Assembly (NCBI RefSeq): GCF_964355755.1
Contig: NC_092672.1
Span: forward strand, 5,456,001-5,520,000
Source: Antedon mediterranea
Lineage: Eukaryota > Echinodermata > Crinoidea > Comatulida > Antedonidae
Reading direction: 5' to 3'
DNA: 64,000 nucleotides
A program made the translations under genes and the position numbers. Shown piece by piece: positions 17,101-48,588 of the stretch (position 1 is its first letter; each line of letters opens with the position of its first letter). The notes under the pieces were generated by a model that saw only the letters and a program-made list of their open reading frames with translations, was not told the DNA's origin and did not search any database.

Positions 17101-19437
17101 ACGTGGAATGTAAAACATTACAGTAACAATTGGAGAAAAAGAATCAAACTCTACAATTCATTACTTTGACAAAAACATAACAAAAATTATTAACAATTAA
17201 ATTGATAGGCTAGAGACACAAACTGCATTCACAATGTATACCAAGTTTGATATAAAAAACTATAGATTAAACCAAATATTCGAGGTGAAAATGTGGAATT
17301 TATGATTGTTTAGAATAAGTCTGTTAACAGTAGAAAAGGTTCGCCAATTGTTAACTTTAGTAATATTAGTTTTAGAGACTGATTGTGAGACAAGATTTCT
17401 TTTTATAGCATTTAGCACTTATGTACGTTACGTAGCTTAGAGATCTTCATAATGTATTTTCTAATATTTCTATTGCTCTTTTTAGAATAACATCTACTAC
17501 TATCTTTTTAACTAAAAGCAACACGCTTACGTTTGAAGGTGAGCTTTTTCCTATTAGTAAGAAACTTTTGCTCTTTTGGGTACAGTTACTATTTTCTTAA
17601 CTTTTTATTGCTTTCAGTTCTATTTCTCTCTCAATTATTCACTCTATTCTAAATGCTAAAACATAATTAACTACATCTTCAACAAGACTAATTAAAGATT
17701 AAGTAGAAACCGCACTTCCTGCTACAAAGCAAGCGAGGAAGTTGGAATGGGTGGGGTATAGAAGAACTCTTTATGATTATTTGTGTTGGCTTTTGTACTT
17801 CTGTAGGTAGCTGGAGAAGTTCTTTCAAACGCTGCTGATGCTTGTACCACCACAATGGACGTGGCTTATCGTGACTGTAAGGTGGTCTTAAATCGAATAT
17901 ACGAAAACTGTATACTTAAGTTAAGCAAGACTAAAATACGTAAGTTATGATTAATTCATTTGGCCTAAATGGTCTATGTCACAAAATATACTTATGCAAC
18001 ATGATGCTATTGAACATGATATTCCCTGATATTATGAGTTAAAACATCCGTTTCAGTAAGATCACTCATTTTCCTTGCTAACTAAATTTAAACATCAAAT
18101 GAAATATGAAATAAACTTGAAAATGTCAATAATATTTTTCAGCCGTTGAGCTATGCAAGCCACTTGATATAGATCCACTGTGCGAGATCATTTCCTTTGG
18201 AAACAGTATTTGTCAAGCGCCAGAGTTTGGCAGAGCAATTGTCGACGACGTAGGAGATGCCATCCAACATATATCAAATAAGATCAACGACGTCTTTCAG
18301 ACAGATATTCATTTTGAAGCTCACTGGGACACCAAAAGAAACGCAAGTAAATCTGCTGCTGGAATCGCAAGGGCGGTTCGACAAGAGCTTGAAGAAACTT
18401 TTAACATCTTTGACACCGCTGTGCTATTTGCGGATCGTCTGTTGGCACTATCCGTTGTGTATGTTCTCTACAGAGCGTATCTATATCATAAATTATATCT
18501 GACAAAAGATAGATTTGATAATTTTTACATTACAAAGGAATTCCGAGATCTTGATGTAAAAAGAACAGAAAGTGGTAAGGAATCGATATTACCACTGAAG
18601 AAACTAGAACGTGGAAAACTTATAGACTTAAAAACATTGGCATTGTCTAAGGTAGAAAGGGGAACCTTTTTGCTAGGTTTTATAACAATTTTTATGTATG
18701 TATTAATTGCTGGAATAATAATAATTGTGGATTATGGCATGTTTTATCTGCTTGATATAATTTCAAGACATGGACAGATTGAATATGAACTAACCGGTGG
18801 AGGAAAAGCTAATATGGACATTGCTGGAACTGGAGTGGTATCAGAATTTGCAAGAGCTTTATTGGGAGATGGCTTCGACACAAACAATGAGCACAACGCT
18901 TCTACCACAATCAACGAGTGTCTTCCACATCCACAAAGACCAGATAAGCAAACTAACATTATCATTGGTGCTCTGTATGGTGTAGCTATCCTAATGGTTC
19001 TTTTCCAATCCTATGCTTTAAGACTACGTCGCTGGATTGCATCGTTCTATTACCCAGCACGAGAAGCAGCACGTATAAACTATCTCTACAGTCAAACTCT
19101 TAAAAAACGCAAGACAATTCGTGACATGTTGCAACAGCTTATAAAAGAGAATGACAGAGAACAAAAAGCTCTGGAAAAAGTCAGCTTTCTATCTTGGATG
19201 TCGGCTAATAACACTTGTTGTCGTAGGATTCTTTGTCGCAACACTCGCGTTTGTATCGCGTGTGCTTCTGATGAAAACGGAGATAAGTTTTATAAATGTG
19301 AGACGATGGATTGTAAGGGAGCATACTGTGTTGAATGTATAAAAGAGGTCGGAGAATTGTGTACTCTTTGTGAAGAACCTTTGAATTATAATGTGGGAGA
19401 CACGGGTTCAGTCCAATGGAATCCTTATGTAGAGTAG
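14164..19437 (+). CDS. DCST1: DC-STAMP domain-containing protein (DCST1/DCST2-like)
   Basis: DCST1 and DCST2 (fly sneaky, worm SPE-42/SPE-49) are sperm membrane proteins needed for gamete interaction; human DCST1 has also been reported as an E3 ligase. Coding exons: 14164-14442, 15304-15640, 15992-16155, 16928-17098, 17807-17939, 18143-19437. Phases agree and give 792 aa. The order is: cytosolic proline-rich N-terminus with a PPSY motif; acidic EREEEEEREKD stretch; two hydrophobic segments in exon 2; family signature SRGRAAFIAF to LLNGPVANIF and SMSCSAE in exon 3; coiled extracellular part; membrane segments in the last exon (GFITIFMYVLIAGIIIIV; IIIGALYGVAILMVLF). A C-terminal cysteine-rich RING-like domain runs CCRRILCRNTRVCIAC through YCVECIKE to CTLCEEP. 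An ATG at 14,101 is in frame, but a strong acceptor (TTTTTATCTAG) at 14,140 makes it intronic. A 5' non-coding exon probably ends at 13,461 (AAAG|GTAAGT). AATAAA lies at 19,456. Paralogue identity (1 or 2) is not certain. Confidence 0.85.
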
Positions 19438-20900
19438 GAAACCTCGCATACAGAGAATAAACTAGTTTTTAAATACTTTAAATTGCTGTGCAAACGTTAA
19501 GGTAGTGTGCCTTGAAACATTCATACAGTTCTATTTTTAGGTTATATCCACTATAATAGCTTCCTTAAGGCCGCCGGCCACGTGTTTTACAAACTGCCCT
19601 TAGATAAATGTAATTATCTAATGTCTATCAAAGATGATTCCCTCTTCTTTCTAATTGGCTACAGTAGTCACAGTTTCCAAGTTCTTCTTATTTGATACAC
19701 AACATTTGAAAACAAATTGTATTTTAATCGTGTCCCCTGTTGAATAGGCCATTAATACCGTGACCTAAATTATTCCCTTTGATAAAAAATTAGATTGGAA
19801 AATATCCAATAACCGCAATTTGAAGGGAAATAGTCACACGATGGAATTGTTAAATGACCCAATCAATATTTGGTTTTATCTCCATGTCATGTTTTAGGGG
19901 ACAAATTTAATTATTAAGGGATCGGTTAGCACTTGTAGGCCTACCAACCCATTACATTCTATAAGATCATTTCATATATCTGGTCTGGTACCAGCTTTTG
20001 TTTTCGTACTTTATATAGCGGTCCCATGGGACAGACATTTATATTATCAAATAGACAGATACTTCATGAAATAATATGTGCATTGTGATTGAAACACTGT
20101 GGAGGATTTTGGAAATGTTTTATCAGAGTGCTCAAACTAACGGCAATGGATAGATTTTACAAACGCAATACTGTGGTTTAAGAAACCGATGTGACATACA
20201 TAATGCCTCGACAGGATTTGAAAATGCGACCTCTCTAACAGAGGCGAGCGTACAACCATTGGAACTCGAGGCAGAAGTTCAAATACCCATGGAGTACATT
20301 AATTCACACAGTTACATAATATAATTTAGAGGAGGCTTGGATGAACAATGAAACATGACGTTTGAATTAAGTAGCAAAATAATAATATTAAAACAATCTT
20401 GTATATAGGCATAATTTAATTATGAAATAATGGCCAGTATAATATTATAATTAAATAGTACAGGAAATTAATAAGAGCATAATGGCAATTAGAGCATGAC
20501 TAATAGAATTATTCAATTAATTTGATAATGTCATAGTTTCTTTCCAAATGTCTTTATTGCCAGCTAGGGAATATCACTGCCAAATAAATATTATATCGTA
20601 TTGATTACAACCAGTTTTCAAGTTTCATTTTCTGTTCATATTATTGTCAAGATGTTTTGAGAGAGTCGCAGTGTTTATTATGATGATGTCTAGATTTGAC
20701 GCTAGTGATGATTATGATTACCCGGTGGTAATAAAGATGATTTTGTCGGGTTAAATATTACATTTAGGTGTTTATTTTAAGGTATTTCTTTTGTGATGAT
20801 GTCTAATTAAACAAGTTAAAATTACATTTGGCCCGAGGAACCAAACTATATAAAAGATGTTTTGTCAACAGCAGAGGGCGTATTGATAAACAGGGACATC
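19438..20900. other. Intergenic interval, DCST gene to ACADS
   Basis: This contains the DCST 3' UTR (AATAAA at 19,456-19,461) and the ACADS promoter and 5' UTR at the right end. I see no repeat with inverted ends and no open frame of interest. Confidence 0.6.
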
Positions 20901-23900
20901 ATGGCGGCAGCAGCGAAGGCATTTCAGAAAGTTTCCAGACAACTTTTTAGGTCAAAAGTGTGTTTTTTGGGTTAGTTTTTACAATGTTACATACATTTTA
21001 TGAGATTATATATGTTGCTTAACCAACTTAAATGTTGAATACAAAAATCGGTAGCGCCCAAGTAGATATTTATGTTAGTTGTTGCTAGGCCCATGACTTG
21101 GACAGGTCGACGGTGATTATAGCATTACTGCCCGTGTTGATTTAGTACTAGTGACGTATGCGTTATACGCACAAGAACCAGGCCTAGGCTAGACCGCTTT
21201 TGATTTGAAATTGGTCGTGTAGTAGTACGAAAAGCAAATATTAGTAAAGTAAATAAGTGTAATATATAGGACTATTGCCAACTGGGTCGTATTGCCCTAC
21301 AATAAATAATGAATTAAATAAAATAAGAAATTGGAAAATATAAATAATGTTTTATTTATATAGATAGTACTAGTAGTAGGGCCTAGCCTACTACTTCTTA
21401 GCTAGCTAGCTAGCCTTGCTGCCTACTATGTATACATTAATGTATATAGCTAGCCAGAGTCAGAGGCCCTATCTATTTAGTAGCGGTATATTCTGACTTC
21501 CCTAGCTACTAGTTAAACATTGAAGCAAATTGGCAGTAGCCTGAACTAATTCCATCAAGTGTAAATGTAATCAATCTACCTAGCCAAGCCCGGGTCTAAT
21601 TAAACTTCGCTTTTGGGCATTTATATTATACAGTATCTTATAACACACAATTAATGTTGTTAAAAAAGTGTTTGTGGTAGATTTCATCGTAATATTAATA
21701 TATGCATTTGATAGATGGTACCCTTATGTACTGTACCAGCAATATTGAGATTTTGCATCATTACGCTGTAATTGAATAGAACATGGTCCCAGTAATGAAA
21801 TCCTACTGGTCTGCTAATATGTAATCACTGCCTTGCTAGGTAACCCATTACAAAGAAAATATGATAAATATGTTATTTAAATTAGTTCTTAGGTATGATC
21901 CCACTTAGTCTACCAAATACAATTTCATATTGAGTAATGGATAGTTGTTGGTTACAATATTTAATATTTTAGTTATTCAATTTCTGCCATACAATACAAA
22001 GAAAAAGACAAAACGAAATATAAAAGGCAAGGAAAGACCAAACAGCTCTTTGTTTTTCAAATATAAATCATCAAATATTTAAAAGTTCAAGATACATACT
22101 TTACAGTACATACTGTACAATGTTGTTGGAGATTTATAAGTTATGCATTGTTTTTTAATTAGTTTTATAAAGAAATCTTAATTTATAGGCCAAAAGATTA
22201 AACTGTAAATAATATTAAAGAGGAGATATAAAAAAAACATAAAATAACGAAAAACATTTATTAGATTTTACAATTATTTTTTCTAAAACATTAGATGAGA
22301 GGGAGGGTGGTGTTCAACCACAAAAGATAAAACAAAATCTGAATTGCTAACTTTTTTTACAGGGTCATCATCTTCAATATGTAAGGCACACAGCTTGGCG
22401 TCTCTGTCTGAGACACATGCGATGCTTAGGAAGACATGTAGAGACTTTGCTGATAATGAGCTTGCACCAATTGCAGGAGAATTGGACAAGGAACATCGAT
22501 ATCCCAAAGAACAGGTAAAACCTTGTCTACACTATCAAACTTTATGTGACACAAAAATGTGATGATGTCGTATCACTACCATATTTGACCACATCACACT
22601 TTTTTTGTCAAACTAGTTTGATAGATAGTGTAGACAGAGCTTAAGAGTTGAAATACAGACATGCCAAAACATTTGAGGGTGGTATAGCAGTTTTAGGTAA
22701 TTCCCTTGTATGGTTGGTTGATCAACACTTAAATAATAATGTCTGTAAAATTTTAATATTTAAATAAAGACTTATTCATAGTGGGCTATCAGTGGTGTGT
22801 TAAACCAAAATAATATTTTTGACAACAATTGTAATGTAATTGAATTTTAATGTTATTCAATTCATCTCATATTATCTAAATTATGTAAAAACAAAATTTA
22901 TCGGGATGTACGAAAAAGCGTTGTTAAATCAATGCGTTAGAATAGGACAAGATGGCCGACCAAACTTTGTTTGTACCCAGTGCAGTCGGTAGCCAGGAAA
23001 CGTGACGTCACTTTTTCTCCCTATTATATTTGAAGTTTCTATATTGCTTGTCAAATTATAATATATAGATTGCAATGCATTATTAATATATCTTATCTTC
23101 CAAACTTGACCTTATACAAAGTCAAATGTACTAGCTAGCCTTATACTTCTTGAGTTAGTACAACCCTATCCAGCCTATTTTAGATGTTTTTATATTAACT
23201 GACTGTGGATGCATGTGCTATTTAATACAAAATGTCTAATCAAATCTATTGCTTATTAAAAAAAACTTAAATGTCATGCTTGCTTGACAGTCACATCTCC
23301 TTCATTTTTAACTAACTGTACTTGCTTGCTTGATATTTAAAATCTGTCATTAGCCATCATCAACCTGATCACATTATAATACTGTATTACCTGTGTCATT
23401 ACAACCATTGTTTTCATCATCATCATTGCCATCATTAAGTAGGTCGCTGTGTACAGACAGATAGTTCTATTCTATTTTTGTTGGGCCTATTTTTACAAGA
23501 AATAACAGTTAGAGAAAAATGGCAAAATCTGAACAGAGTTGTCAAAACATTGTAATACTAATCCTATATGATAACTTAACCACATAAAACTCCTAGAAAG
23601 TAGGAAGCCTTTTTCCTTTTTTTCCTGACTGTTAATTTATTATTATTTAGTAGTTATTATTTTACTATCTTAAGCATCATCTCCTATTTCATTGTATCTT
23701 TCATCAGGTGAAAAAATTAGGAGAGCTCGGCCTAATGGCAGTTGACGTTCCAGAAAAATATGGCGGGACAGGCTTAGATTACTTAGCGTATGCAATAGCT
23801 ATTGAGGAGATCAGTAGAGGATGTGCTAGTTGTGGTGTTATTATGAGTGTTAATAATGTAAGTTGATGCATACTAAAATAATAATGTAATAATAATGTAA

Positions 23901-26900
23901 TAATAATGTAAGTTGATGCATACTAAAATCAATGCCAATTTTAGGTTATTTAAGCTTGGTTCCCACTAGGGACGCAACTGAATGACACAAGTTGAACATA
24001 AGTAATTTGACCAATCACAAGCTATGGATTATTCAAACTGTCGCCTGTCATTGGTCAACTTTACTTGCATTGTGTCTACATCCTTGTGTATCTAGTTAGA
24101 ACCAGGCTAGGTAAAGGCAAAGGTTATATTAACTTCTACACCGTACATACACATGATAGCTTGTGTGTGAAGTAAGGTAAGGATATAATAAGTTTACAGA
24201 TCATAATTACTGTAGATGAGGTTCTATGTCATGGAAAAAAGTGTGCAGATTTGTTCTACCTGGTAAGGTAAGTATAAGGGAAAAGGATACCTACTGGGTA
24301 GCTGTTCAGATTAGCAATTGTGGTTTTTAGTGGTGTTGTATTTGCTATTTCAAGCGTTCCATCAAGCTTTTGTATACTGTTTATTCTAGAAAAAAAGTTT
24401 TTGTTGGAAATTTTTAAGTGCTGTCAGGTTTGAGTTGGTAATAATTTAGATTTATATAGGTCTGTAAATAAAAAAAAATAATTAAAAAAAAGGATTCAAG
24501 TTTAGGATGTCAGACAACAAACATACCAGTAATTGTTAAAGTACATAAGAAGTTTTAGCATTGAAAGACACAATAGTGGGACTTGAAATGAATACTTGAG
24601 ACATCTAGCACCTAAATTGAGATAGAGAAAAACAAGACAGATAGCAAGTGTGACAGTTTGTTGAATTCTTTTATAGATTAGGCACTCAGAGACACTTTTG
24701 GGCCAACCTACAAAAAACACATCATCATACAGTACCTACTATATTGCTCTTACCATCATTTACAATGCATTGATTAAGCAAATATATTTTATGCAATTCT
24801 ATATTAATGTTCGTATCTTATTCTACTTTATATCCCATCTTGTTTAACATTACTAATCCATGCAAATTCATACTGGATTCTTATTACCAATGAAGCTTCT
24901 GTTTTTGGTATCATTTCTGCATTTCATTTTCATCATGCCAATAGGCTAGTCATGTCATAGGCTGCCATTCTGACGTTCCTTAGCCATCTGCTTGGCTTGC
25001 ATAGTCTGCCTACAAATTGTAGAAATGCCCTGTACTTTGTATCAACCTCTACTTGGGTCTGGTCAGGTAAAGATGATGGGTGATCTAGGCCTGATGGCAC
25101 TTCAAGTACCAGATACATATGGTGGATCTGATCTAGATACTATGTCTTATGCCATTGCGATGGAGGAGATCAGCCGAGGGTGTGCAGCAACAGGGACAAT
25201 TTTAAGTGCTCACAATGTAAGTACCATATTGACTGCTATGAAAGAAACCAACGGCAACCGGTAAGATATTAATCATTATTGGTAGCCTAGGTCTGTATGC
25301 ATATGTATTTGTACTACTGTATGTCTCCAGTCAATACTATGAAAGAGGTCAGGTCATTGCTGTACATTTTGAGACTAGATGTGATTGATTTTGGTGTACA
25401 GCATTCATGTGTGTAAGTATACCTCATTTGTGAGTTTTTATTATTAGTGAATCTTAATATAAAATGTATAAAAACAAAAAATGTAAATAAAAATAAAATA
25501 CATGTAAAAACATATTGAACTATAAACACAATTGAATCTATGTGTACAACAATTTTTATTTAAACGTGAACTCATAACTGACTTTGATATGAATGTAAAG
25601 GAACATCATTAACAATATGACATCAACAACCATATGAATGACATCAACAACCATATGAATGACATCAACAACCATATGAGTGACATCATCAACCATCTGA
25701 TGAAGTGTATCCAGTAAGTCAGATACACAGAATTTTGCTTTCATACAAGGGTTAAATCGAATGAATTATTTTGATAATAGTTGTTTTTTAGTGAAAACAC
25801 TTCCTTTTCTTTCACTTGCAGTCATTATATTTATCACCAATAATGGAATTTGGAAATGAAGAACAAAAACAGAAATATATATCACCTTTTGTGGATGGCA
25901 GTCGTGTCGGTTGCTTTGGTCTAAGTGAACCAGGTATTGTAGAACCATTACATATCCAATATATTATTTAAGTAAATGTGGGGATAGCCTAAAACCCTAC
26001 CTTTCAACTTTTCTTTCTATGGTATTTTGTCTGCCAGACCATTCCATTTCAAAACTGAATGTAAATCAATATTATTCAGACAGTAATAAATATTATTTGT
26101 GACCAAATATGAATTTTAAGCATTACTATTATTATGATATTGCACTGAAGAAGAGTTTAGTGTTATCCAAAAGTTCTGCAACGTTTTAGCTTTCTGATTA
26201 TTTTATTTGTATCTCCATCCAGCCACTACTGATACCCACAGCATTTTCTTTTGATTTATAATTATGATATTATAAACAGTTAACTTTAAAATGTAACTGA
26301 TACACTGTTGAATAATTATTTAAATCAAAATAACAGCCATAACTGTCCAATCAGATGTCAGAATGTCACCGACCAATAAAATAACCAGCTTCTTTGAATT
26401 CTTACTTGAACCAACTCTTTTAGGTAATGGCAGTGATGCAGGCGCAGCGTCCACTACAGCACATCTGGATGGTGATCACTGGGTCTTGAATGGAACCAAG
26501 GCATGGATTACCAACGGGTATGAGAGCGAGGCCTCTGTCGTGTTTGCCACAACAGATAGAAATTTAAAACACAAGGTAATAAAATACAGTAGAACTCCTA
26601 TTAATGGGACATTTTTAGAACCAAAAATTTATTTTAAAATATAAATTTCCCCTCATTCTTTTCAGATAAATGTCCTGGTTGTTTTGTGTTGATTTGTCGT
26701 GTCCCATGTCCCGCTTGTCTTTGTCCCTTTGTTTAATGTCTGAGGCAGACCCTTTTCAAGGGTCCTGTATCTGGGAACCTGCTTTTTCCCAGATTTATTG
26801 TTATTTTTCTATGTTATTTCTTAATATTCCATTATTGTTTAAATCTTAAAAGGAAGTAAATAAATGTTATTTTGAATTGAGTGCAAGGTGTCCCCTTAAA

Positions 26901-28993
26901 AAAAGTGGTGTTTTCATAAGGAATAGTCTAAAAAAAAAAGGTCTAATAAACTTTGGTAATATCATGTATTTAATTCATCAATATGCCTTTGATTTTTAAT
27001 ATCCAGGGTATTAGTGCTTTTATTGTTCCAAAGCCCATTGATGGGTTATCACTGGGTAAGAAAGAAGACAAGCTAGGAATCCGGGCTACGTCTACTACAT
27101 ACCTTATATTTGAAGATTGTAGAATACCAAAAGAGAATCTTTTAGGAGAACCTGGATTTGGATTTAAAATTGCTATGGTAAGTTTATGATAATTATTACA
27201 GTACCTCCTCTAAGGAGGTTATGTTTTCATGTATGTTTTTTTTATTATTTTTTTTAAAAACTTTATTTAATGAGGGTGACATGCATGAGGCCCTCAACAA
27301 TGTGTGTATGTTTCTTTATTTCTATATTTGTTCATTAGCAAGATTACTCAAAAAGTTATTGCCCAATTTTCATAAAAATTGTAAAAGATGATTTCATAGC
27401 TGTATGGAAACACGTCATTAAATTTTCAATGCCTAGGCAAAGGTTTGTGCTCTTTGAGTGTAGTTCTAGTTTAAAAATAGATTTATTATGTATAACTGTT
27501 ATTTTTTTATGCATTGGTTATTTTTTTTATGTTTATTTTTTATTCTAACTCTTTTATATATTTATTTATATTGGTTCTTTTTAGACAACTCTGGATGCAG
27601 GTAGGATAGGAATTGCAGCGCAAGGTGTTGGTATTGCACAGGTTGGTTGAAGTCATCTGCCTTCTTTTACTTAATAAATACAGTGGCGTAACGGCTATGA
27701 ACGATCACTGGCTAAACCCAGGAGCCCGGAGCTTATGGGGGCCCCTGAGCAGTGCTCAGAGAAAAATCAGGCATTAAAATATGTCGAAAAGGGATAACAC
27801 TGCTCGATCCCTCCAGCGTTGGAGGGCCACTTAGGGTTCCTAAACAAGGGTCCTCAGGTCTCCGATTAAGTAGCTTTATTCTTAACTTGAGCTTTTCTTT
27901 TTACAGGCTGCCCTGGATTGTGCTATTGATTATGCAGCGAAGCGTGAAGCATTTGGAGCTCCGATAAGTAAGATGCAAATGATACAATCCAAGCTAGCTG
28001 ATATGGAGGTTAAAGTTCAAAGTTCACGGTTATTGACCTGGCAAGCTGCTGCATTCAAAGATGCAGGACTGAATTTTACAAAAGTAAGTGTATTAACTTG
28101 TGGAGAAGGTAGTGAATAAAAAAAGGATGTGTTTTTTAGATATAGTTATTTAATTCGTTAGACGTATTTTGGTAAAAATCAATAGGTTGTTAAGACAAGC
28201 AATCACTTCTAAACAGGTCTGCATCATTGTATTTTGTTTTGTGTTAATGTGATGACATAATTGTAATTCAATGGAATACAGTATTGGCTAATATGAGAGT
28301 AAAGAAGAGTAGGGGATCATGGGTCCATAGAGGGCCTAATCCGAAATTAAATATCATCTGTATATACAATTTTTTACGTTAAAACAGTATACATATTTAT
28401 GTTTTGACTTGTTGTCAACAAGTCTTTATCTGGCAATGACTAAATGTTAGTGGTTGCTAGTTGTAGAGCATTCGTAAACTTGGTAAACTAAAGATGAAAA
28501 CATTTTTCGCAGGATAAATACATTTACCTTTAATACTTTTTGGCAATTTATTTTGTAATAGGAGGCAGCAATGGCCAAACTAGCAGCATCAGAAGCAGCA
28601 ACCTTCAATGCACATCAGGTAATGTGTTACTGAATATGATATACTGATAATAATACTGATAAGCAATAATCTGATCATTATGTTCTCGTCAACACTTTTG
28701 TGCAGCATTTAAGTACGCTTTCATTGCCATATTTTATTTGCATGCATAAACAAAAATAAACAACTTAGCATCTTTGCCCTGTAATCTTCATACAAAATAT
28801 ATTTGTTCCATTGCTCATTGTGTTTTATTTTTAGGCCATTCAAGTACTCGGTGGAATGGGTTACGTAACGGATATGCCTGCGGAGAGGCACTACAGGGAC
28901 GCTAGAATCACAGAAATATATGAAGGAACTAGTGAAATTCAACGACTGGTTATTGCTGGACAACTTTTAAAAGAGTTTTCTCAGAAAGTTTAA
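20901..28993 (+). CDS. ACADS: Short-chain specific acyl-CoA dehydrogenase, mitochondrial
   Basis: This FAD enzyme of the mitochondrial matrix oxidises butyryl-CoA-length substrates in the first step of beta-oxidation and passes electrons to ETF. Exons: 20901-20970, 22363-22514, then 3A 23708-23857 or 3B 25067-25216, 25822-25933, 26424-26575, 27007-27177, 27585-27641, 27907-28083, 28562-28618, 28835-28993. With one exon 3 the protein is 418 aa (human 412). The N-terminus ([20 protein letters not shown]) is a basic, Arg-rich mitochondrial presequence. Family landmarks: [20 protein letters not shown] (FAD/substrate loop), [66 protein letters not shown] and [18 protein letters not shown]. The last carries the catalytic glutamate of [10 protein letters not shown]. 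The start has the usual MAA-type onset. Introns hold several MITEs, one abutting the exon 2 donor. The oddity is the duplicated exon 3, described separately. Confidence 0.95.
22517..22643. mobile_element. Family-A MITE copy 6, abutting ACADS exon 2 donor
   Basis: The element starts within 2-4 bp of the GT at 22,515-22,516, so intron positions from about +3 to +5 onward are transposon-derived (CCTTGTCTACACTATCAAAC). The right end is GTAGACAGAGCTTAAG. Only about 127 bp long, with part of the interior missing. Confidence 0.85.
23504..23634. mobile_element. Family-C inverted-repeat element copy 2 (ACADS intron 2)
   Basis: AACAGTTAGAGAAAAATGGC at the left mirrors the right end near TTTTTTTCCTGACTGTTA. 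The interior AAACTCCTAGAAAGTAGGAA matches the copy at 9,784 in reverse orientation. Confidence 0.6.
23708..23857 (+). other. ACADS: ACADS alternative exon 3A
   Basis: 150 bp, phase 0 at both ends, CAG acceptor and GTAAGT donor. It encodes 50 residues running [20 protein letters not shown] through [20 protein letters not shown] to GVIMSVNN. It is closer to human ACADS than exon 3B is (the human exon also ends GVIMSVNN), so it is likely the ancestral or major form. Confidence 0.9.
23954..24108. mobile_element. Family-B inverted-repeat element copy 2 (ACADS, between 3A and 3B)
   Basis: TTGGTTCCCACTAGGGACGC at the left mirrors CTAGTTAGAACCAGG at the right. The interior contains TTGACCAATCACAAGC and its inverted partner TTGGTCAACTT. 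It lies in the intron separating the two alternative exons. Confidence 0.65.
25067..25216 (+). other. ACADS: ACADS alternative exon 3B
   Basis: 150 bp, phase 0 at both ends, CAG acceptor and GTAAGT donor. It encodes a second version of the same 50 residues: [20 protein letters not shown], then [20 protein letters not shown], then GTILSAHN. By my count 31 of 50 residues match exon 3A. There are no stops or frameshifts, and conserved positions are kept, so it appears to be under coding constraint. Using both copies would keep frame but duplicate a structural element, so mutually exclusive use is the natural reading. Confidence 0.85.
25618..25695. repeat. Short tandem repeat, 21-bp unit, 3-4 copies
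   Basis: The unit is GACATCAACAACCATATGAAT, repeated with small changes. It lies in the intron between ACADS exons 3B and 4. Confidence 0.85.
26587..26900. repeat. Degenerate repeat patch in ACADS intron 5
   Basis: It starts CAGTAGAACTCCTATTAATG, like the element ends at 61,335 and 62,310. It contains a LINE-like 3' tail (GGAAGTAAATAAATGTTATT at about 26,852) and then GTGTCCCCTTAA. The parts look like a nested or broken insertion; boundaries are uncertain. Confidence 0.35.
27681..27875. mobile_element. Family-D (hAT-like) MITE, right-truncated, ACADS intron 7
   Basis: It begins CAGTGGCGTAACGGCTATGA and shares ACTGGCTAAACCCAGG and GGGCCACTTAGGGTT with the complete copy at 59,410-59,578. The expected right terminal repeat is missing. 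Confidence 0.65.
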
Positions 28994-30999
28994 TTGATCC
29001 AACGATCTCACATTTACCTCAGTGGACGCAAGAATACATAAATTAAATAAATTATTAAGAAGATTATATTGATGAATGATGTACGGACATAAAATCATTA
29101 ACTTTGATTGTGTGAGATGACTGCACCTTATTTTGTCACAGTCATTAAATCCATCTATAGTGATTCACTGTGTGTAATCTTGACCACTGTGGTTTAGTGG
29201 TCAAGATACTTGTTTGAATGCAGAATACAGATTTTTAACTAACCAAAATAAACCTGAAATATGTATGTTTATTGTATATTGTAATTAGCACAATACATTA
29301 TAAATATAAAAATTATTTATCAATTTAATGTCTGGAGTTAAATTTGCTTTTTAAAATCATTACTCATTATTTTGCTTACAAAAATTATGAAAATTATGAA
29401 CCCTTTATTTTTTTTACATAAGTAGTTACTATAAAATATTACACAATATATTTGCATTATATATAAATATTATCGCATAAGAATTCCCTAAAAATGGCCA
29501 AATTTGATTTGATTACTCAATATATATGCATATATTGTAATATTATTGTGTAATAATTTATAGTTAATAGTTTTTCCTTACTAGGCCTATTAGTGACATT
29601 TTTAAAAAATTGCCAAATTTCGACCCTTTTCTTTTTTGACATAACTAGTTACTATTGCTCTATAAAATGATGATAACACAATATATGTGCATATATGGCA
29701 ATATTATTGCATAATTATTGAATTTTAAAAAGTGGATATTTTGACCATTTTTTTAAAAAATCCCTGTACTATAGTACAGGGAAATTTTCGAAAAATCGCC
29801 GATTTTCGACCCTTTTATTTTTTGACATAAATGGTTACTATTGCATAATAAACATGCGCAGAGACAAATAATAGGTTCTGCGCATGTCAATTGTGCTATA
29901 GTAACCAGTTTTGACATAAATGGTTACTATAGCATAATAAACATGCGCAGAGTAGACTAATGGGTTCTGTGCATGTTAATTGTGCTATATAGTAACCAGT
30001 TTTATCGAAAAATTAAAAGGTCGAAAATTACCCATTTTTTGAAAAAATCCCTGTACTATAGTACAGGAAATCTTCGAAAAATTACCAAATTTCGACCTTT
30101 TTATTTTTTAACATAACTAGTTACTAAGATGATGATAACACAATATATGTGCATATATGGCAATATTATCGCATAATTATTGAATTTTAAAAAGTATATA
30201 TTTTGGCCGTTTTTTCGAAAAATCACTGTACTATAGTAAAGGGACATTTTCGAAAAATGACCAAATTTCAACCCTTTTATTTTTCGACATAACTAGTTAC
30301 TATTGCTCTATAAGATGATGATAACAATATATATTCGCATATATGGCAATATTATCGCATAATTATTGAATTTTAAAAAGTCCGGGATATTTTTTATTGT
30401 TTGACATAATTGGTATAACATAATATACATAATTACATGTGTATACCACATTATGTGCGTCTGAGCATGTCAATTTATGATATGGTAACTAATTAAAAGG
30501 GTCAAAATTTGGCACATTTTCGAATAAAATATCTGTACTATCAAGTACAGGGATTACAAAAAAACATATTTTTATTTTAATTTTAAAAAAAAAGGAGTGG
30601 GTCGCAAATCGGTACAGGTATCTTTACTAGTGGTGTCATAACAATAAATAGACAATACAGTTTTTTATTTAACTAGGAAAATTTCAACCCTCTTAATTTA
30701 ATAAAAAATGTGACTAAGTACATCTTCAAACAGTTGCTGAAAACCCTTTCTTTCGCATAACATATGAAATGACGTCATTTCTACCTACCTCCAGCCTTGT
30801 GGTCGTAGCGCTTTAGAAAAAAATTATTTTGGTTAGGCGCTATACAAAAGACAATTATTATTATACATGGATACGATGACATCATATCACTACCATATTT
30901 GGTCATATCACTACCATATTTGGGCACCTCACACATTTTTTTTGTCAAACTAGTTTGATAGTGTAGATAGAGCAGGAATTGATAATCAAAATAATATTT
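28994..30999. repeat. AT-rich repeat block between ACADS and SDS
   Basis: From about 29,500 to 30,560 a set of motifs recurs in irregular order: TTGACATAACTAGTTACTAT, CAATATATGTGCATATATGG, TTATTGAATTTTAAAAAGT, and a palindrome CCTGTACTATAGTACAGG at 29,763, 30,050, 30,224 (mutated) and 30,532 (mutated). At 29,820-30,000 a unit with AACATGCGCAGAG and its inverted partner occurs twice, 94 bp apart. No coding potential. The block resembles a decayed, internally repeated transposable element. Confidence 0.6.
30866..30973. mobile_element. Family-A MITE copy 7 (truncated), beside SDS stop codon
   Basis: Only the right part remains (ATATCACTACCATATTTGGG, then GTCAAACTAGTTTGATAGTG). It ends 26 bp from the SDS stop, so it is in the presumed SDS 3' UTR. 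A further small fragment of the family is at 31,679-31,740 in the last SDS intron. Confidence 0.75.
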
Positions 31000-33900
31000 T
31001 TATAATCCAAATTTGGATTTATATTTATTTAACATTTCTAAAGTTATAGAACATCCTCCACAAACAATGACCACTGCTGATTGGATAACAGTTTGTAACT
31101 TGCCCTGCTCTTGTAGTTTTGGTATTACATTGCTATAGATACCAGCGAGGGCGGCACCACATGCTGGCTCTACTAGAATTCTATGTTCATCTATAAAGTA
31201 TAGAACAAATTTGAAATTTAATTCTCAATATTATTATTTATTATTACTATTCACATGCATGCATTATGGTGGCTTGTTGAACCGTTTTATCATTCACTAG
31301 ATTTTCCATGATATCTCAATATACAAATAATGAATATTTATGAATGCAATAGTATAAATATTTTCATGGTGAGAATAGCACATTTCATTATTCACTGAAT
31401 GTAAATATTTGTTCCATTGCACGAATATAAACAAGTAGATTATTGTTTATTTTGAGGAGGGTCACGATTGCATATAACAAGAACGACCACTCATATATCA
31501 ATCCACTTGATGTTGTATGAGTTCAATGGAGCATGTATTTTATATCATGTTACCCACAATCATCAAATCAAATAATAACAATCTACTAAAGATAAAGATG
31601 ATGTATAAAATGAACATGGTCAGTCATTTTACTATAGATTGGTTTTGACTGGATAATTTTTTGACTTATATTGTGTGCAAATGTGTATGAGACGAGATGA
31701 AAAATGTGATGTGCTCATATGGACAGGATGATGTCATATATATAGAAGTCAGAACAAAGTAGTGTCCTACCTGTGAACCTGAGACAAGCATCAACAGCCT
31801 CCTTATCAGATATGACAACTGAATGCACCTCATGCTGACTGTAATAATCAAGGGCTTGCTGACATGCAGTCAGTGCTCCAAGACACTTGGCAACACTATA
31901 TAAAAATATGAAAGATTATGAAGAGGCATATAGAAGCTATTGCAGTGTGTTGAAAAGGCATACCACTGGTGCCTGATTAGACCCTCTACAGACCCACACT
32001 ATTCTTTCACCTTGGTTATATTAGATGTTTTGCCCTATTCTAACCAATGCCATCTAACAACAGGATGCTGAGCTCTGGAGATCAAAGGGTTTATCTGTGG
32101 CTGCGACATGATCAGTTCCATGCCCCTTAACAGACACCGCGCACCACATAGAACATGTACATAGTATAGTACTGTTGGTATTTGTCGCAGCCAGACATAA
32201 GATCAAAGGAATGTTACGATCGAGTTCCTATCTTAGCAAGGCGAGCTCAGTTTCCTGTTGTTAGATTGCCTGGTTCTGACATACATTGTATTTTATACCA
32301 ATTACAATTCAGAACATGCAAGTGATTTGAGTGGAACTTGACCCCACAACATCTAGAACACAAGCCTGGCAATCATATGTCTAGACCACCAAGATTGCAT
32401 TGATATCAAGCCCAATTTTAGCTCCCGATACAAAGTTACTTTGCAGTTTGTATAATACATACCTTGTTATGTCGTCTAGTGTTACCAACTCGCCTTTCTT
32501 AACAGCTGCATTGTAACAATCGGCTCCAACAGTCTCAATAGTAATGACAGGTACATCATTCCATCCAACCTTCTTTAAGCCCTCGATCACGCCACAAAAC
32601 AGACCACCACCTCCAACAACTGTTATCAGCACATCAGGCTTATGGGTCATGTCGTCTGCTATTTCTTCAATCATTGAACTATGACCCTGCCTGGGAGTAC
32701 AAGAATGATAAATTAGAAATGTATCAAAAAGTCAGTCTTTTTCATAACTAACAAAAATATATAAGGTAAACTAATACTATATATCAATGTATAGGTGTCT
32801 TAGTCTTAAGCTCTGTCTACACTATCAAACTAGTTTAAAAAAGTGTGCCCAAATATGGTAGTGATATGACATCACCATGTCCATATATGGCCACATCACA
32901 TGTTTTTGTCACATAAAGTTTGATAGTGTAAACAGAGCTTTAGAGGTACTCTTACCATATATCTGGATGATCAAAGGGGTGAATAATGGTGCCGTTTGAC
33001 TGACTAGCAATTTCTAACGCTCTTTTGTTTGCTTCGTCCCACACCTAAAACAACACAAATACAATCGGATTTTAGTTGACAGTACACGAAAATTACATAC
33101 TATATACATATTAAATTTATTCAGGTATATAGTAAAAACATGCAGCCAGAAGTCTGAAATTGTTGATTTAAAAAATATATTATTATTATTACAACTTGTA
33201 ATACCTTTCCATGATATTCTACTGTTGCGTTCTCATCTCTTAATTTTTGAGCTACAAATTCTGGTGTGCTTTTTGGTATGACAACTGTCGCTTTGACGCC
33301 AAGCTTTCTGGCTGCATAAGCTGCTGCTATCCCAGCATTCCCACCTGTATTTTACAACAATTCACAGCAAATTGTTTCACACACATTTATTTCAATGTTA
33401 TTGTTAGGCAGTAAATGTTGTATATCTATCCATTACAGTTGTATAAAGCTCTGTCTACACTATCAAACTCGTTTGACAACAAAAGTGTGTGCCCAAATAT
33501 GGTAGTGATGTGGCCAAGTGGTATGACATGTCCATTTGGGCACATCACATTTTTTTGTCACATAAAGTTTGATAGTGTAGACAGAGCTTTAGAGCAGAAA
33601 TACATGACAAAATAAATGATCTAACAACTTGAATAATTTGAACTTACCTGATGAAGAGACAATATGCTTTGAGCCTTTCTCAATTGCCTAAAAAAACAAA
33701 TACAAACATTTGAGCATAACTAGTAGGCTCTATTTACAATATTATGTTCGTACAGCATACTATACAGTTGATTCTATCCTTTTGCTTATACTCATAGAAG
33801 GCGAAATATTTATACAGTACCAATATGGACAACACCTATTTAGAGGATACCCTATTATAAAAGTTACACTTTGTTGAGTTCAAAAGGTGTCACTTTAAAA

Positions 33901-34224
33901 TAGAGTAAAAAAGTTTCAGTTTTTGTGAATGCATTTCGAAGCAGGGCAGGTGGGGTGAAGTATTTTCTTAAATATTAATTATATTAAATTATATGTATGT
34001 ATGTATGGATTGGTGGAATAAAATGTTATATTATACATTATCAAATAAGTGATCAAATAATTTACCTTTTTACATAAGTTTGAAATGCCACGTATTTTGA
34101 ATGATCCAGTGGGTTGGGTGTTTTCAAGTTTTAAATAAACTTTAAACGGAGCATGTTTAGAGAGTGCAGTGCTTTCTATCAATGGTGTACGAACATATAG
34201 CTGCTGTTTCTGTTTATCACTCAT
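31000..34224 (-). CDS. SDS: L-serine dehydratase / L-threonine deaminase (SDS/SDSL type)
   Basis: This is a fold-type II PLP enzyme that deaminates serine to pyruvate and threonine to 2-oxobutyrate in the cytosol. Exons on the minus strand: 34066-34224, 33648-33687, 33205-33344, 32956-33044, 32463-32690, 31771-31895, 31000-31190. Phases agree and give 323 aa (human SDS 328). Seen in the sequence: VRTPLIESTALSKHAPFKVY; the PLP-binding lysine in GSFKIRG (Lys43); SSSGGNAGIAAAYAARKLGV (substrate/PLP loop, human SSAGNAG); HPFDHPDIWQGHSSMIEEIA; the phosphate-binding VVGGGGLFCGVIEGL; and LVEPACGAALAGIYSNV near the end, with a VIVCGGCSIT strand where human has VVIVCGGSNI. SDS and SDSL cannot be separated by eye. 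Introns 2 and 4 carry complete family-A MITEs. The gene looks intact. Confidence 0.92.
32808..32942. mobile_element. Family-A MITE copy 9 (SDS intron 4)
   Basis: Nearly canonical ends (TTAAGCTCTGTCTACACTAT and GTGTAAACAGAGCTTT). It lies 14 bp from the donor side of SDS exon 4. Confidence 0.9.
33446..33590. mobile_element. Family-A MITE copy 10 (SDS intron 2)
   Basis: One of the best-kept copies, with TATAAAGCTCTGTCTACAC at the left and GTGTAGACAGAGCTTTA at the right. Confidence 0.9.
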
Positions 34225-35003
34225 TTTGGAATACGTCTGTCGAGATTATATAATTATTGATTTAGGCCTAGGCCTATATAAAAATAAATATGTATCACTG
34301 TATAGTTACTTAATATCTATTTAATGTATTGTGTATTATGACATTATTTGCTATTATAACGCAAAGAATGTCAAGCCAGGCCTGTGCATGCCTAACTAGA
34401 CTGTAGGACACTCACGTCCACGACCACCACCAGTTACAGACTGCATTCCTCAATTATAGGCCTAAATAATATTAATATAGGCCCTAGGCCTAGGCCTAGC
34501 CTAGATCATAGGGCCTGGCTACCCTCCTTCGCTTAGCTGGCCTTATAACTCTGTTTGGCTAGCTCAATCATATACATATTAGGAATGAATAATGAGGCCT
34601 AGTAGTAGGCTTCACACCATTATAAATATGAAGAAAATGAAAAACTTCGACTATGAACTTACACACTTTATTAATCGATCAATTTGTTTGAAAACTGCGC
34701 CCTCATCTAGGTACCACAAATTATGTAATTAGGTGATGACGTAGTACGGTGATTCCCCCACCCAACACTCCGCCACTTCCTGGTCACTGCCACATGATGT
34801 AATATTATATTAATAAACTAAATTACTGTACTACAATGTAAATTAACCAGACCGTAATAATGAAAGGGGTAGACGGAAACTTAACTTAAAAAAACATTTA
34901 ATTGTTACTGGTATTTACTTGGTGTTAAATACAGTTTTAGATAAAGAGGAAATCCATACTTAGACTAGACAAGCACCACGACGAAGAAGTCGCATAAATC
35001 GTT
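34225..35003. promoter_or_regulatory. Divergent promoter region of SDS and UNC93A-like genes
   Basis: 779 bp between two oppositely oriented start codons. It contains a cluster of TAGGCCTA repeats at about 34,440-34,520. Core promoter elements could not be assigned. Confidence 0.45.
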
Positions 35004-37261
35004 ATGACTAGGCCAAGTGAAACACCGCCTGTAACCCAGTCGACTGGACTCCATACCGGTAGGCCAATTGTGACATCGTCCCTACTGCCGAGGGCTAGAC
35101 GAAGGAAGACGTATTGGAAGAACCTGTTCGTTCTAAGTCTAGCTTTCTTCTTTGTTTTTACAGCGTATATGTCAATACAAAACTTACAAAGCAGCTTAAA
35201 CACTGAAGAAGACCTGGGAGTGATATCATTAACCATCGTGTATGGATCGGTTGTCTTTTCGTGTATTTTTATTGCACCGATTTTAATTAGAAAATTTGGC
35301 ACAAAATGGACTATGGCAGGCAGTATTGTTATGTATAGTGTATACACCGCTTGTAACTATTATCCAACCTACGGTACATTAATCCCATCATCATTTTTGA
35401 TTGGACTTGCCGCGGCACCTCTGTGGACAGCACAGGGCACATATCTGACGACATCTGCCATCAGTTTGGCAGACCTTACCAATGAAGTTCCGGAAACCTT
35501 GTTAAATCGCTTCAACGGTATCTTCTTTGTCATCTTCCAGTCAAATCAAGTTGTCGGAAATTTAATTTCCTCTTTAGTTCTGCAGCAGACGGATGAAACG
35601 AGCCCAAACAATACCGGTTACTGCGGACGTTGCAGTTGCAACAAGGCTTCTTCCAATAGTACTGGTGATAGTAGACAACCAGATAAGAGTCTGGTTAACA
35701 CACTGCTGACTGTTTACCTGGTGATAGGTATCATTGGGTTACTTCTGGTAGTGTTCTTCCTTGATACTCTGCCAACGTTTCAGTCATCTCGCATGGATAG
35801 AAGAGAATGTATGCAGAAGTGGTTGGAGACTCTTGGCATTCTACGGAACCCTATTCTTGTACTTTTGGTACCGTTAATGATGTACAGTGGCATTGAACAA
35901 GCATTCGTTGCTGGAGATTTTACAAAGGTGACATTATTACTATTCTAAGTTTATTTGAGCCCCATTGGCGTGTGCCCAGTAGGCTACTTCCCCTGCAATC
36001 CATCTCTCCTACGCAACACTTATGGCGGTGCCTGGCATGTTGCAACCTTATAAATGATACTTGTTGATCAGGGAAAATGATGCCTAAATGCTTTAGTTCT
36101 GCCCAATTTCAAAATCCAGCAGGATCTATCACTGACTCACTGTTAGTCAATGGTACTGTAGATCCTGTTATATTTTGAAATTGGAGGACATGGGATACAA
36201 GGCTGTAATTTCACTCTTCACTGGATTAACCTGTATCTTTCACATTGTATTTTACCAAATTTAGAAGGGGCGAGCTGGCTTTTAAAACATTACAATCCCC
36301 TTCCCTCTTCCGGATCTATTTCCGACTATAACCCTTTTAGTACATCAATCATATTTTTTTATTTACAGGCATATGTCACCTGTGCCAAAGGCGTTGAATG
36401 GGTTGGTTATGTAATGATCTGTTACGGAGGTGCAGACGCCGTCTCGTCGTACCTCCTAGGCCGCCTTGAGAAATACACTGGACGACTGATCCTCTTCTCG
36501 TTAGGTGGTTTAGTTCAGATGATCCTCATCGTAACCATGTATCTCTGGCACCCGAAGGCTGATGATGACATCTGGAAGTTTATGTTAATTGCTGCTGGAT
36601 GGGGATTTGGTGATGCTGTTTGGCAGACGCAAATTTGTTGTAAGCACAAAAAAACTGCTTATAGCAGCACTTTATTTTGAGTAAACGATTTGGCTTAAGT
36701 CAGTTTTACATTTTTCTTTCTTAAACTTTAGAGTTCATTCCATAAGATACGTCTTAATTTTCAGTTAAGCAGTGCGTCTTCTTAACTCTCTTGGTATTGG
36801 CAACAAGATTTTTTTTAAATGCCATATTTGGATTCCTCCTTTTTTATTTCTATTACGACATGATTCAAGTATAATTAAATCTCTCTGGACACATTTTTAA
36901 CCATATTTTTACAAGAATTGTGTCTAAACTCTTCAAATTTTTACAACTAAATTTAGTACTGATTATAAAAATGTTCATATACTGATATAAATTTATTTTT
37001 ATTTCAGCCATTGTTGGCGTACTTTTTCCTGACAAACAAGAGTCTGCCTTCGCTAATTTCCGTCTATGGCAATCCCTGGGATTCAGTGTGGCGTTTGCCT
37101 GTAGTATTCCCAACAACGTCTGTATCCACCATAAATTATTTGGCTTTGGCGGATGGCTAGTCATGTCAATGGTTGCTTACTACACTGTAGAAATCATCGT
37201 TCATCGCACCAAGCCTGGATATTTGGAAGTAAAGGTTATGGAATCAGATGCAATAGGCTAG
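35004..37261 (+). CDS. UNC93A: UNC93A-like major facilitator protein
   Basis: This is a multi-pass membrane protein of the UNC-93 branch of the major facilitator superfamily. UNC-93 regulates a two-pore potassium channel in nematodes; the role of UNC93A in other animals is poorly known. Exons: 35004-35927, 36369-36639, 37008-37261, giving 482 aa (human UNC93A about 457). It has a short basic cytosolic N-terminus (RARRRKTYWKN) and the first membrane helix LFVLSLAFFFVFTAYMSI, followed by the family's NLQSSLN. Next come YGSVVFSCIFIAPILIRKFG, then GLAAAPLWTAQGTYLT, matching the UNC93 signature region. A luminal loop has Cys-rich GYCGRCSCN and glycosylation sequons (NNTG). The second half includes GVEWVGYVMICYGGADAVSS and AAGWGFGDAVWQTQ. 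AATAAA lies at 37,348-37,353. A run of at least 16 G at about 37,290 is in the 3' UTR. Confidence 0.9.
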
Positions 37262-47085: not shown

Positions 47086-48588
47086 TACTACCCTTCACTC
47101 CAATTGTGTTGTGTACAGCTCGTCACCCCACGTTATGAGTACTTTGTATGCTTTTTACAATCTGGTGTATTCACATATTAATTAAAATATTAGGCCTACT
47201 ACCGTATTCCCTTTTGACACATATATTAGTAAAAAGATCATCTTCTATTATTATAATAATATATAATAGGTAGCATAAATATATGTAGCCTAAATTATGT
47301 TAGGGGATTGCAAGATAATTGCATTTAATTGGCTAAGAGATAGACGAGCCACCATAATACTAATCTAAGAAACACATTGTACCCGTGAATACGAGCGAAA
47401 ATGGTGTAATGAATGGCGAAGTAAATCGTATTCAGTAAAGAAAAAAATACAAATATAGGTCGCCGCCTGGACCTAGGCCTATAGACCATGATACCTATGT
47501 AAAGGTGAAGAGTGCGCAAATCGAAAGCTCATACCTGCTGTTTGTTAGTTTTTAGTAAATAACAAGTTAAATAAAACACATGTATTAATATATATATTTA
47601 TATATAAAATACTTAATCATGTGTCTTTGCCATTTAAATTGCATTTTAATATTAACAAACAAAAAGGCAGCAGGAAATGGGAAAACATTTCACTATCAAC
47701 TTTCATACTAGAACATGGACACTCGCATTGTCGATATACATAATTACTAAAACCAGGTCATGTTGTGTGTTGATACATTGCATATGTTGTTATTGCAGTG
47801 TCTAATTTTAAATGTAAAACAATACCAACAATAATTGGAAAAAGTATTCCTAAATCGCCAAATTGTTTAGATTATGGAGATACGTGTAGCGTTTTTCCAC
47901 ATGTTATTCATGATAAATAGAGGACACTCTGCACCCGTTTGATGCTGTTATCATTCTGCCATTTGGTACCTTTCAACAGACTTTCAACTCTCTGCTTAGC
48001 AACAACTGCAATTTTTTTTCCAACTGTACGATATATCAGGTATGTTGTAATATCTTTAATTGCACATTAGAATATGATTTATTTTAATACTTTCAATTTA
48101 ATTATATTAAGTGCTGGGTAGAAAAAGAGTTAATGCCATGAATATAAGATAGAAATATGTAAAAATTAGAAAAGATGAAACCATATGTTAATGTAAAGCC
48201 TATTATTTGATAATAAAATAGTGTGACGTTCGACCCCATTTTTATAAATGTATTTGTAAATGTAAAAGTTAAAGAAGCCGAATGTTCTATAATAGGCTAA
48301 AGGATGGAAGATCGAAATCAATCATCTTATGTAAGCCTATATATACAATGTAAGCTATATTAATTTATGGGACCTACTTTTAACACTGGATCGTCATATA
48401 AATGAGAGGAAAATATGTTTAAACAAAAAAATAAATTTCTTCTCGGTAATAATACTTGAGAAGTACGGAACATTACATTTAAACATATGCCTCGACATAT
48501 CTTGCTCCCGTAATAGATGCATTTTCTTTGAAATATAGGTACCCAGCATTTTTTTTAAGCCATGACTTTTAACTTTTGGCAGGTCATT

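What the first reader, a model, noticed from the sequence alone, without database searches (positions are those of the whole stretch)
23708..25216. Tandem, probably mutually exclusive, exon 3 pair in ACADS
Seen: two 150-bp exons 1.2 kb apart, both phase 0 with good splice sites and no lesions, encode the same 50-residue segment with 31 of 50 identical residues. Known: this segment includes the helix whose equivalent in MCAD (GVQTAIEGN) lines the base of the acyl-chain pocket. Exon 3A ends GVIMSVNN like human; 3B ends GTILSAHN, which I recall as similar to bacterial butyryl-CoA dehydrogenases. Inference: one gene makes two SCAD isoforms that may differ in substrate preference or stability. I know of no such description in vertebrates.
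Basis: partly seen in the sequence, partly recalled or inferred. Interest (0 to 1): 0.75.

Follow-up and report, generated by a model that had tools for sequence, protein, structure and literature searches.

The report
Swappable exon pair in ACADS gene
In an unidentified animal's genome, the gene for a fat-burning enzyme (SCAD) carries two versions of one exon, both kept intact by natural selection, so the animal can probably make two versions of the enzyme that differ near the substrate pocket.

Summary
ACADS carries two 150-nt, phase-0 exons (23708-23857 and 25067-25216) with intact GT-AG sites; their peptides are 31/50 identical. Gene models with either exon give 418-residue SCADs (exon 1 is predicted).

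Exon 3B is not a relic. Synonymous sites are saturated (LWL85 dS 2.05, dN 0.31), yet 3B alone scores 56 bits to the ACAD N-domain. Neutral simulations never matched it (0 of 1000, 0 of 1000, 0 of 300). Flanking introns share no similarity beyond chance, against an assembly artefact.

The most likely reading is mutually exclusive splicing that swaps SCAD residues 71-120 (human numbering). The catalytic and FAD residues named for human SCAD lie outside this segment. 3B changed faster than 3A (12 versus 3 unique sites) and reads LSAH where 3A and human read MSVN; LSAH is the commonest motif in bacterial homologues (41 of 80).

Splicing is unproven: no RNA data. All four exon combinations stay in frame, and no looping structure exceeded chance. 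How exclusion works and what 3B does remain inference. The kind is known; I found no report for ACADS.

The parts
20901..20970 (+). predicted exon 1 of ACADS ([23 protein letters not shown] + 1 base), leader-like peptide, donor TGG|gttagt
   Evidence: the one candidate (ATG start, 6-60 codons, right phase, at least 6 of 9 donor matches, 19435-22362); a wider scan with another donor rule listed six other, less leader-like ones; joins in frame. Not proven
22363..22514 (+). ACADS exon 2, ends CAG|gtaaaa
23708..23857 (+). exon 3A, 50 codons, phase 0-0, the human-like version (41/50 identical to human residues 71-120)
23902..23929 (+). exact 28-nt copy of the 3A donor region (23852-23879); a second AAT|gtaagt donor 50 nt downstream whose use would bring a stop codon
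25067..25216 (+). exon 3B, 50 codons, phase 0-0, the divergent version (31/50 to 3A, 32/50 to human)
25822..25933 (+). ACADS exon 4 (shared)
26424..26575 (+). ACADS exon 5 (shared)
27007..27177 (+). ACADS exon 6 (shared)
   Evidence: end corrected
27585..27641 (+). ACADS exon 7 (shared)
27907..28083 (+). ACADS exon 8 (shared)
28562..28618 (+). ACADS exon 9 (shared)
28835..28994 (+). ACADS exon 10 (shared), coding to the stop; carries the catalytic Glu (human E392)

Best explanation
Exons 3A and 3B are an old tandem duplicate of ACADS exon 3 that is spliced in a mutually exclusive way, so that one gene makes two full-length mitochondrial short-chain acyl-CoA dehydrogenases of 418 residues. The isoforms share all else, including the FAD-binding and catalytic residues, and differ at 19 of 50 positions in residues 71-120 (human numbering), a segment that ends beside the tip of the acyl chain. 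Shown: the gene anatomy, and long purifying selection on both copies as SCAD sequence. Inferred: that 3B is spliced, and exclusively (equal length, equal phase, same structural slot, no place in the fold for a second copy). Inferred more weakly: 3A is the default and 3B the regulated form; and 3B changes the pocket tip (V114T, M116L, V118A, N119H around the unchanged S117), so that acyl chain length, branching or turnover differs. The confidence given is for exclusive splicing into two working SCADs; for a changed pocket as the purpose I would say about 0.4.
For: Equal length, phase and splice-site type; open frames with either exon. The 200 nt on each side align no better than shuffles (13.0 against mean 12.8; 12.0 against 12.3). 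Codon-position differences 14, 8 and 31 of 50; 17 of 31 identical residues use different codons; LWL85 dN 0.31, dS 2.05; NG86 dS saturated. Shared four-fold sites differ at 12 of 15; at each of d = 0.5, 0.75, 1.0 and 1.5, 0 of 2000 neutral runs had no stop and at least 31 identities (3% at d = 0.3). With stops purged, neutral drift to 19 changes never reached 3B: residues found in homologue columns (15 of 19; neutral mean 6.5; 0 of 1000), BLOSUM62 sum (0 of 1000), profile score (79.2 bits; neutral mean 18.2; 0 of 300). PF02771 per exon: 3A 64.3, 3B 56.0 bits; in the whole isoforms 141.5 and 133.8. 3B comes from the animal exon: A81, L93 and G108 are in 3A, 3B and human but in 0 of 80 bacterial homologues. 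S117, I275 and Y391 limit chain length in human SCAD (PMC13027082, passage of section 2.3) and are present in both models. The FAD, substrate and catalytic residues named in its section 2.2 lie outside 71-120.
Against: No transcript evidence. Both exons together (468 aa) or neither (368 aa) would stay in frame. The 1209-nt intron is long enough to splice; intron-intron complementarity, ungapped and over trimmed introns, is at shuffle level (22, 48 and 34 of 100 shuffles as good). 3B has Asp92 where human and 78 of 80 bacterial homologues have Gly, and Thr114 where 74 of 80 have Val; Q83, D86, T87 and D92 are in none of the 80. Of the ten acceptors examined only 3B lacks a YTNAY match 60 to 10 nt upstream. 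The barrier residue S117 itself does not change. No spliced retrocopy was found. No relative's genome could be checked.
Confidence: 0.72

Rival explanations
1. Mutually exclusive exons (as in the best explanation) whose purpose is not substrate choice: the isoforms differ in stability, temperature optimum, partner binding or place of expression, with similar activity on butyryl-CoA. This rival shares the splicing claim and differs on purpose.
For: S117, I275 and Y391, the named chain-length barrier of human SCAD, are the same in both isoforms. Of the 19 changes, 15 lie before position 114. In human tandem-exon pairs the key functional residues are mostly kept and three quarters of the isoforms are tissue-specific (PMC9741552 abstract).
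Against: Four changes cluster at 114-119 around the barrier residue, and three of them give the motif commonest in bacterial homologues.
Confidence: 0.35
2. 3B is an unused or decaying duplicate; only 3A is spliced.
For: No RNA evidence; pyrimidine tract of 3B 10 of 16 against 12 of 16 for 3A (but exon 5 has 10 and exon 9 has 9) and no YTNAY match before 3B; faster change of 3B (12 against 3 unique sites, p = 0.035); Asp92 at a nearly invariant Gly.
Against: Synonymous saturation with intact frame and splice sites and a 56-bit family match; neutral simulations never matched it.
Confidence: 0.08
3. Both exons are included together, giving a SCAD with a 50-residue tandem insert.
For: The 2-3A-3B-4 join keeps the frame, 468 residues without internal stop.
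Against: A second copy of this segment should not fit the ACAD fold (inference, not modelled); selection kept SCAD-type residues in both copies, as expected if each fills the same slot.
Confidence: 0.04
4. 3B makes an isoform for oxygen-poor conditions that runs toward enoyl-CoA reduction, by analogy with the COQ2 exon switch of rhodoquinone-using animals.
For: Precedents: mutually exclusive COQ2 exons switch quinone type (PMC7434440 passages); ETF dehydrogenase runs in reverse in helminths (PMC8659336 passages). The 3B tip matches 5ol2_C, which I recall as a clostridial enzyme working as crotonyl-CoA reductase.
Against: COQ2 in this genome gives one set of exons with only partly overlapping profile ranges and no second copy of the switched part (open frames of the stretch listed). 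Direction depends on redox partners, not clearly on these residues.
Confidence: 0.05

Closest known systems
Mutually exclusive tandem duplicated exons as a class (e.g. PKM, PFKP; PMC9741552, PMC9013439)
   Same: Two adjacent homologous exons of equal length and phase encoding the same segment, functional residues largely kept
   Different: Exclusive splicing is not shown here; no listed title in my searches describes an ACADS case, and ACADS does not occur in the main text of PMC9741552
COQ2 exons 6a/6e in nematodes, other helminths, annelids and molluscs (PMC7434440, passages)
   Same: Equal-length exon pair in a mitochondrial enzyme gene; swaps part of the enzyme core; one exon is the widespread form, the other divergent
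   Different: COQ2 has RNA and genetic proof; ACADS 3A/3B has none; this genome shows no such COQ2 pair
Oyster AOX duplicated exon 10 (PMC5589949, passages)
   Same: Mitochondrial oxidase gene of an invertebrate with a tandem duplicated exon, 63.5-65.9% nucleotide similarity (here 97 of 150), one copy conserved and one faster
   Different: Terminal exon with its own stop and an alternative 3' site, not internal exclusive exons; expression shift under air exposure shown there
Human SCAD (8sgs, 7y0a, 2vig) and rat SCAD (1jqi)
   Same: Gapless alignment of model residues 12-390 with human 32-410; catalytic Glu and barrier residues the same
   Different: One exon-3 version in the solved proteins; human N207, a substrate contact, is His in the shared part of both isoforms here

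Membership tests
Mutually exclusive tandem exon pair | Adjacent homologous exons arisen by tandem duplication | tested here: met
   31/50 aa, 97/150 nt, adjacent, same strand; animal-SCAD residues shared by both
Mutually exclusive tandem exon pair | Same length and splice phase, usable GT-AG sites | tested here: met
   150 nt, phase 0-0, cag| and AAT|gtaagt for both
Mutually exclusive tandem exon pair | Both copies under coding constraint | tested here: met
   (pairwise comparison and simulation under mutation models of my choosing; no relatives)
Mutually exclusive tandem exon pair | Transcripts contain one or the other, not both | not testable with these tools
   no RNA data; no retrocopy found
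Mutually exclusive tandem exon pair | A visible device that enforces exclusion (frame/NMD, short intron, U2/U12 mismatch, competing RNA pairing); common, not required | tested here: not met
   frame kept in all four combinations, 1209-nt intron, GT-AG sites, complementarity at shuffle level; trans-acting regulation cannot be tested
[quoted passage not shown]
   PF02771, PF02770, PF00441 above cut-off in both isoforms; E372 of the 394-residue model aligns to E392
[quoted passage not shown]
   isoform B: rat and human SCAD 608-601 bits, next chain 429 bits
[quoted passage not shown]
   needs an enzyme assay
Rhodoquinone-type metabolic exon switch | COQ2 e-type exon in the same genome | tested here: inconclusive
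   no second match over the switched profile part among 7 matches; exon-level search can miss weak matches

The most novel reading that the evidence does not exclude
Exon 3B is a survivor from deep animal history: the duplication predates the split of this lineage from vertebrates, 3B kept (or regained) the bacterial-type LSAH pocket tip while 3A and vertebrate SCAD have MSVN, and splicing lets one gene switch a core beta-oxidation enzyme between an 'ancestral' and a 'modern' acyl pocket, perhaps with recursive splicing at the CAG|GT junctions that each 2-3 join recreates.
Probability: 0.15. Interest if true: 0.8.

Novelty: new member of a known kind. Interest (0 to 1): 0.55.

Why it matters
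Swapping a substrate-pocket segment by splicing in a core mitochondrial enzyme is, to my knowledge, rare; the COQ2 case (PMC7434440) tied one such pair to the choice of quinone in animals. If ACADS does the same, one gene supplies two SCADs, a natural pocket-swap experiment on the enzyme whose defects cause human SCAD deficiency. The pair makes the chain-length determinants of SCAD testable by assaying two natural isoforms.

Tried and rejected
Competing intron pairing: the repeat finder gave arms that would loop out 3A or 3B, among them AT-rich arms close around 3A, but the best ungapped complementarity was no better than dinucleotide shuffles (22, 48, 34 of 100). Not taken as evidence.

Assembly duplication or uncollapsed haplotypes: rejected because of synonymous saturation and no flanking similarity.

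3B taken from another ACAD paralogue or from bacteria: rejected; its best solved matches are mammalian SCADs (54.6-58.3 bits against 42.5 for the next chain), and its best of 80 bacterial segments is 28/50 against 32/50 for human.

Retrocopies as a record of splicing: none seen. Of 46 hits of the full protein, 10 are ACADS exons of the window and 36 are short pieces at 28-54% identity elsewhere.

Rhodoquinone link: COQ2 shows no tandem pair.

Dating by tree: exon 3B falls outside (3A, human, rat) with 97 ultrafast bootstrap, but the AU test does not reject 3A+3B together (p = 0.12). I first thought that the LSAH/MSVN sites caused this; dropping positions 116-119 left it unchanged (deltaL 2.9, p = 0.115). 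Left open: 50 sites, one fast branch, 24 of 80 loci chosen by hand.

Not identified.

A patient variant at Gly92 (G92C, recalled) was looked for and not found, so it is not used. YN00 failed numerically.

Structure prediction was not used: the spliced isoforms are not read letter for letter from the window, which that tool asks for.
Full report
Exon 3A is 23708-23857 and exon 3B 25067-25216, each 150 nt, phase 0 at both ends, preceded by cag and followed by gtaagt, without stops in frame. I rebuilt the gene: exons 2 and 4-10 run from 22363 to 28994, and a predicted exon 1 with a leader-like peptide lies at 20901-20970 (an earlier scan with another donor rule had listed six other candidates). 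With either exon 3 the model gives 418 residues and no internal stop. Both isoforms match the three ACAD domains of Pfam. Isoform B aligns without gaps to rat and human SCAD (608 to 601 bits; next chain 429 bits). In the 354-Mb genome the full protein finds 46 places: 10 are exons of this gene, 36 are short pieces at 28-54% identity. The 3B peptide finds only 3B and 3A.

Is 3B alive? The copies differ at 14, 8 and 31 of 50 first, second and third codon positions, and 17 of the 31 identical residues use different codons. LWL85 gives dN 0.31 and dS 2.05; NG86 finds dS saturated; YN00 failed. The 200 nt on either side are no more alike than shuffled sequence. Evolving 3A neutrally under an AT-rich HKY model of my choosing, at d = 0.5, 0.75, 1.0 and 1.5 none of 2000 runs each kept an open frame and 31 identities; at d = 0.3 it was 3%. 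A second simulation that forbade stops and ended at 19 changes never reached 3B in residues known from bacterial or human columns (15 of 19; neutral mean 6.5; 0 of 1000), in BLOSUM62 sum (0 of 1000) or in fit to the bacterial profile (79.2 bits; neutral mean 18.2; 0 of 300; 3A itself 100.7). So 3B has long been selected as SCAD sequence. It has still changed faster than 3A: with human as third sequence, 12 sites are unique to 3B and 3 to 3A (two-sided binomial p = 0.035).

Where do the changes fall? A81, L93 and G108 are shared by 3A, 3B and human but occur in 0 of 80, so 3B comes from the animal exon. At 116-119, 3A and human read MSVN (7 of 80 bacteria) while 3B reads LSAH (41 of 80); the 20 bacterial proteins most similar outside exon 3 all have LSAH. 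Over the whole segment 3B is less like bacteria than 3A (22.9 against 25.0 identities on average). Odd residues of 3B are D92 (Gly in 78 of 80), T114 (Val in 74 of 80), and Q83, D86 and T87, seen in none of the 80; 3A too has residues seen in none, such as D83 and T91.

Function. In human SCAD, S117, I275 and Y391 form the barrier to longer acyl chains (PMC13027082, passage of section 2.3). All three are present in both isoforms (S97, I255, Y371 of the 394-residue model). The FAD and substrate contacts named in its section 2.2 lie outside residues 71-120; one of them, N207, is His in the shared part of both isoforms. In LCAD the start of helix E and neighbouring small residues set cavity size (PMC11153573 passages). 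The swap therefore leaves the chemistry alone and changes the neighbourhood of the chain tip. That V118A and M116L loosen it is inference; no structure was computed.

Splicing. Mutual exclusion is inferred from equal size and phase and from both copies being kept for the same slot. None of the usual enforcing devices is visible: every combination stays in frame, the intervening intron is 1209 nt, the sites are GT-AG, and ungapped intron-intron complementarity is at shuffle level. 3B has a weaker pyrimidine tract than 3A (10 against 12 of 16), though exons 5 (10) and 9 (9) are no better, and it alone of ten acceptors lacks a YTNAY match 60 to 10 nt upstream; this fits 3A as default but is weak. 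Joining exon 2 to either exon recreates CAG|GTGAAA or CAG|GTAAAG, donor-like sequences that could allow re-splicing and so prevent double inclusion; this is an idea, not evidence, and may simply follow from a Gln-Val codon pair.

Age. Placing the 50 residues of 3B on a tree of full-length proteins (3A isoform, human, rat, 5ol2_C and 24 of the 80 loci, chosen by me) puts 3B outside 3A plus mammals with 97 ultrafast bootstrap, but the AU test does not reject 3A with 3B (p = 0.12). Dropping positions 116-119 changes nothing (deltaL 2.9, p = 0.115), so the weak preference does not come from the LSAH/MSVN sites; a long-branch effect of the fast 3B remains possible. The duplication is old; whether older than the split from vertebrates is open.

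Setting. The genome has alternative oxidase (5 matches) and ApeC (22 matches), both recalled as missing in vertebrates. Species unknown. COQ2 has no visible exon pair, against a rhodoquinone-type switch.

Known kinds. Tandem duplicated, mutually exclusive exons are a recognised class; a 2002 study cited in PMC9013439 (passages) put tandem duplicated exons in about 10% of animal genes, and PMC9741552 (abstract; passages) analyses 236 human events and does not name ACADS in its main text. The nearest parallels are COQ2 exons 6a/6e (PMC7434440 passages) and oyster AOX exon 10 (PMC5589949 passages). In my searches for an ACADS case I saw listings, and no listed title describes one (of 33 papers 20 were listed, of 104 12); only open-licence PMC papers are held. 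Hence: new member of a known kind, in an unexpected gene.

Noticed in passing
window 23852-23879 and 23902-23929: Exact 28-nt direct repeat: the last 6 nt of exon 3A plus 22 nt of intron recur 50 nt downstream, joined by an 11-nt AATAATAATGT array. The second donor would extend 3A by 50 nt and bring a stop, so it could act as a decoy or poison donor.
   Followed up: partly
window 18133-19434 +: DC-STAMP-like open stretch upstream of ACADS (PF07782).
   Followed up: no
window 32384-32731 and 33982-34245, -: Two open stretches matching a PLP-dependent enzyme (PF00291), downstream on the opposite strand.
   Followed up: no
window 34998-35945 +: UNC-93-like open stretch (PF05978).
   Followed up: no
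window 48559-50937 +: One 793-codon open stretch with ZP-N and ZP-C domains.
   Followed up: no
window 61720-61840 -: 5S rRNA gene match, 65 bits; an open frame on the same strand overlaps it (61490-61786), probably chance.
   Followed up: no
window about 29400-30550: Degenerate repeated units with the motif ctgtactatagtacag downstream of ACADS (seen by eye).
   Followed up: no
G000:C4:31381946-31392809 and G000:C2:10671995-10679453: Two other ACAD-type loci look like tandem gene pairs, since profile parts recur in order, unlike the exon-level duplication in ACADS.
   Followed up: no
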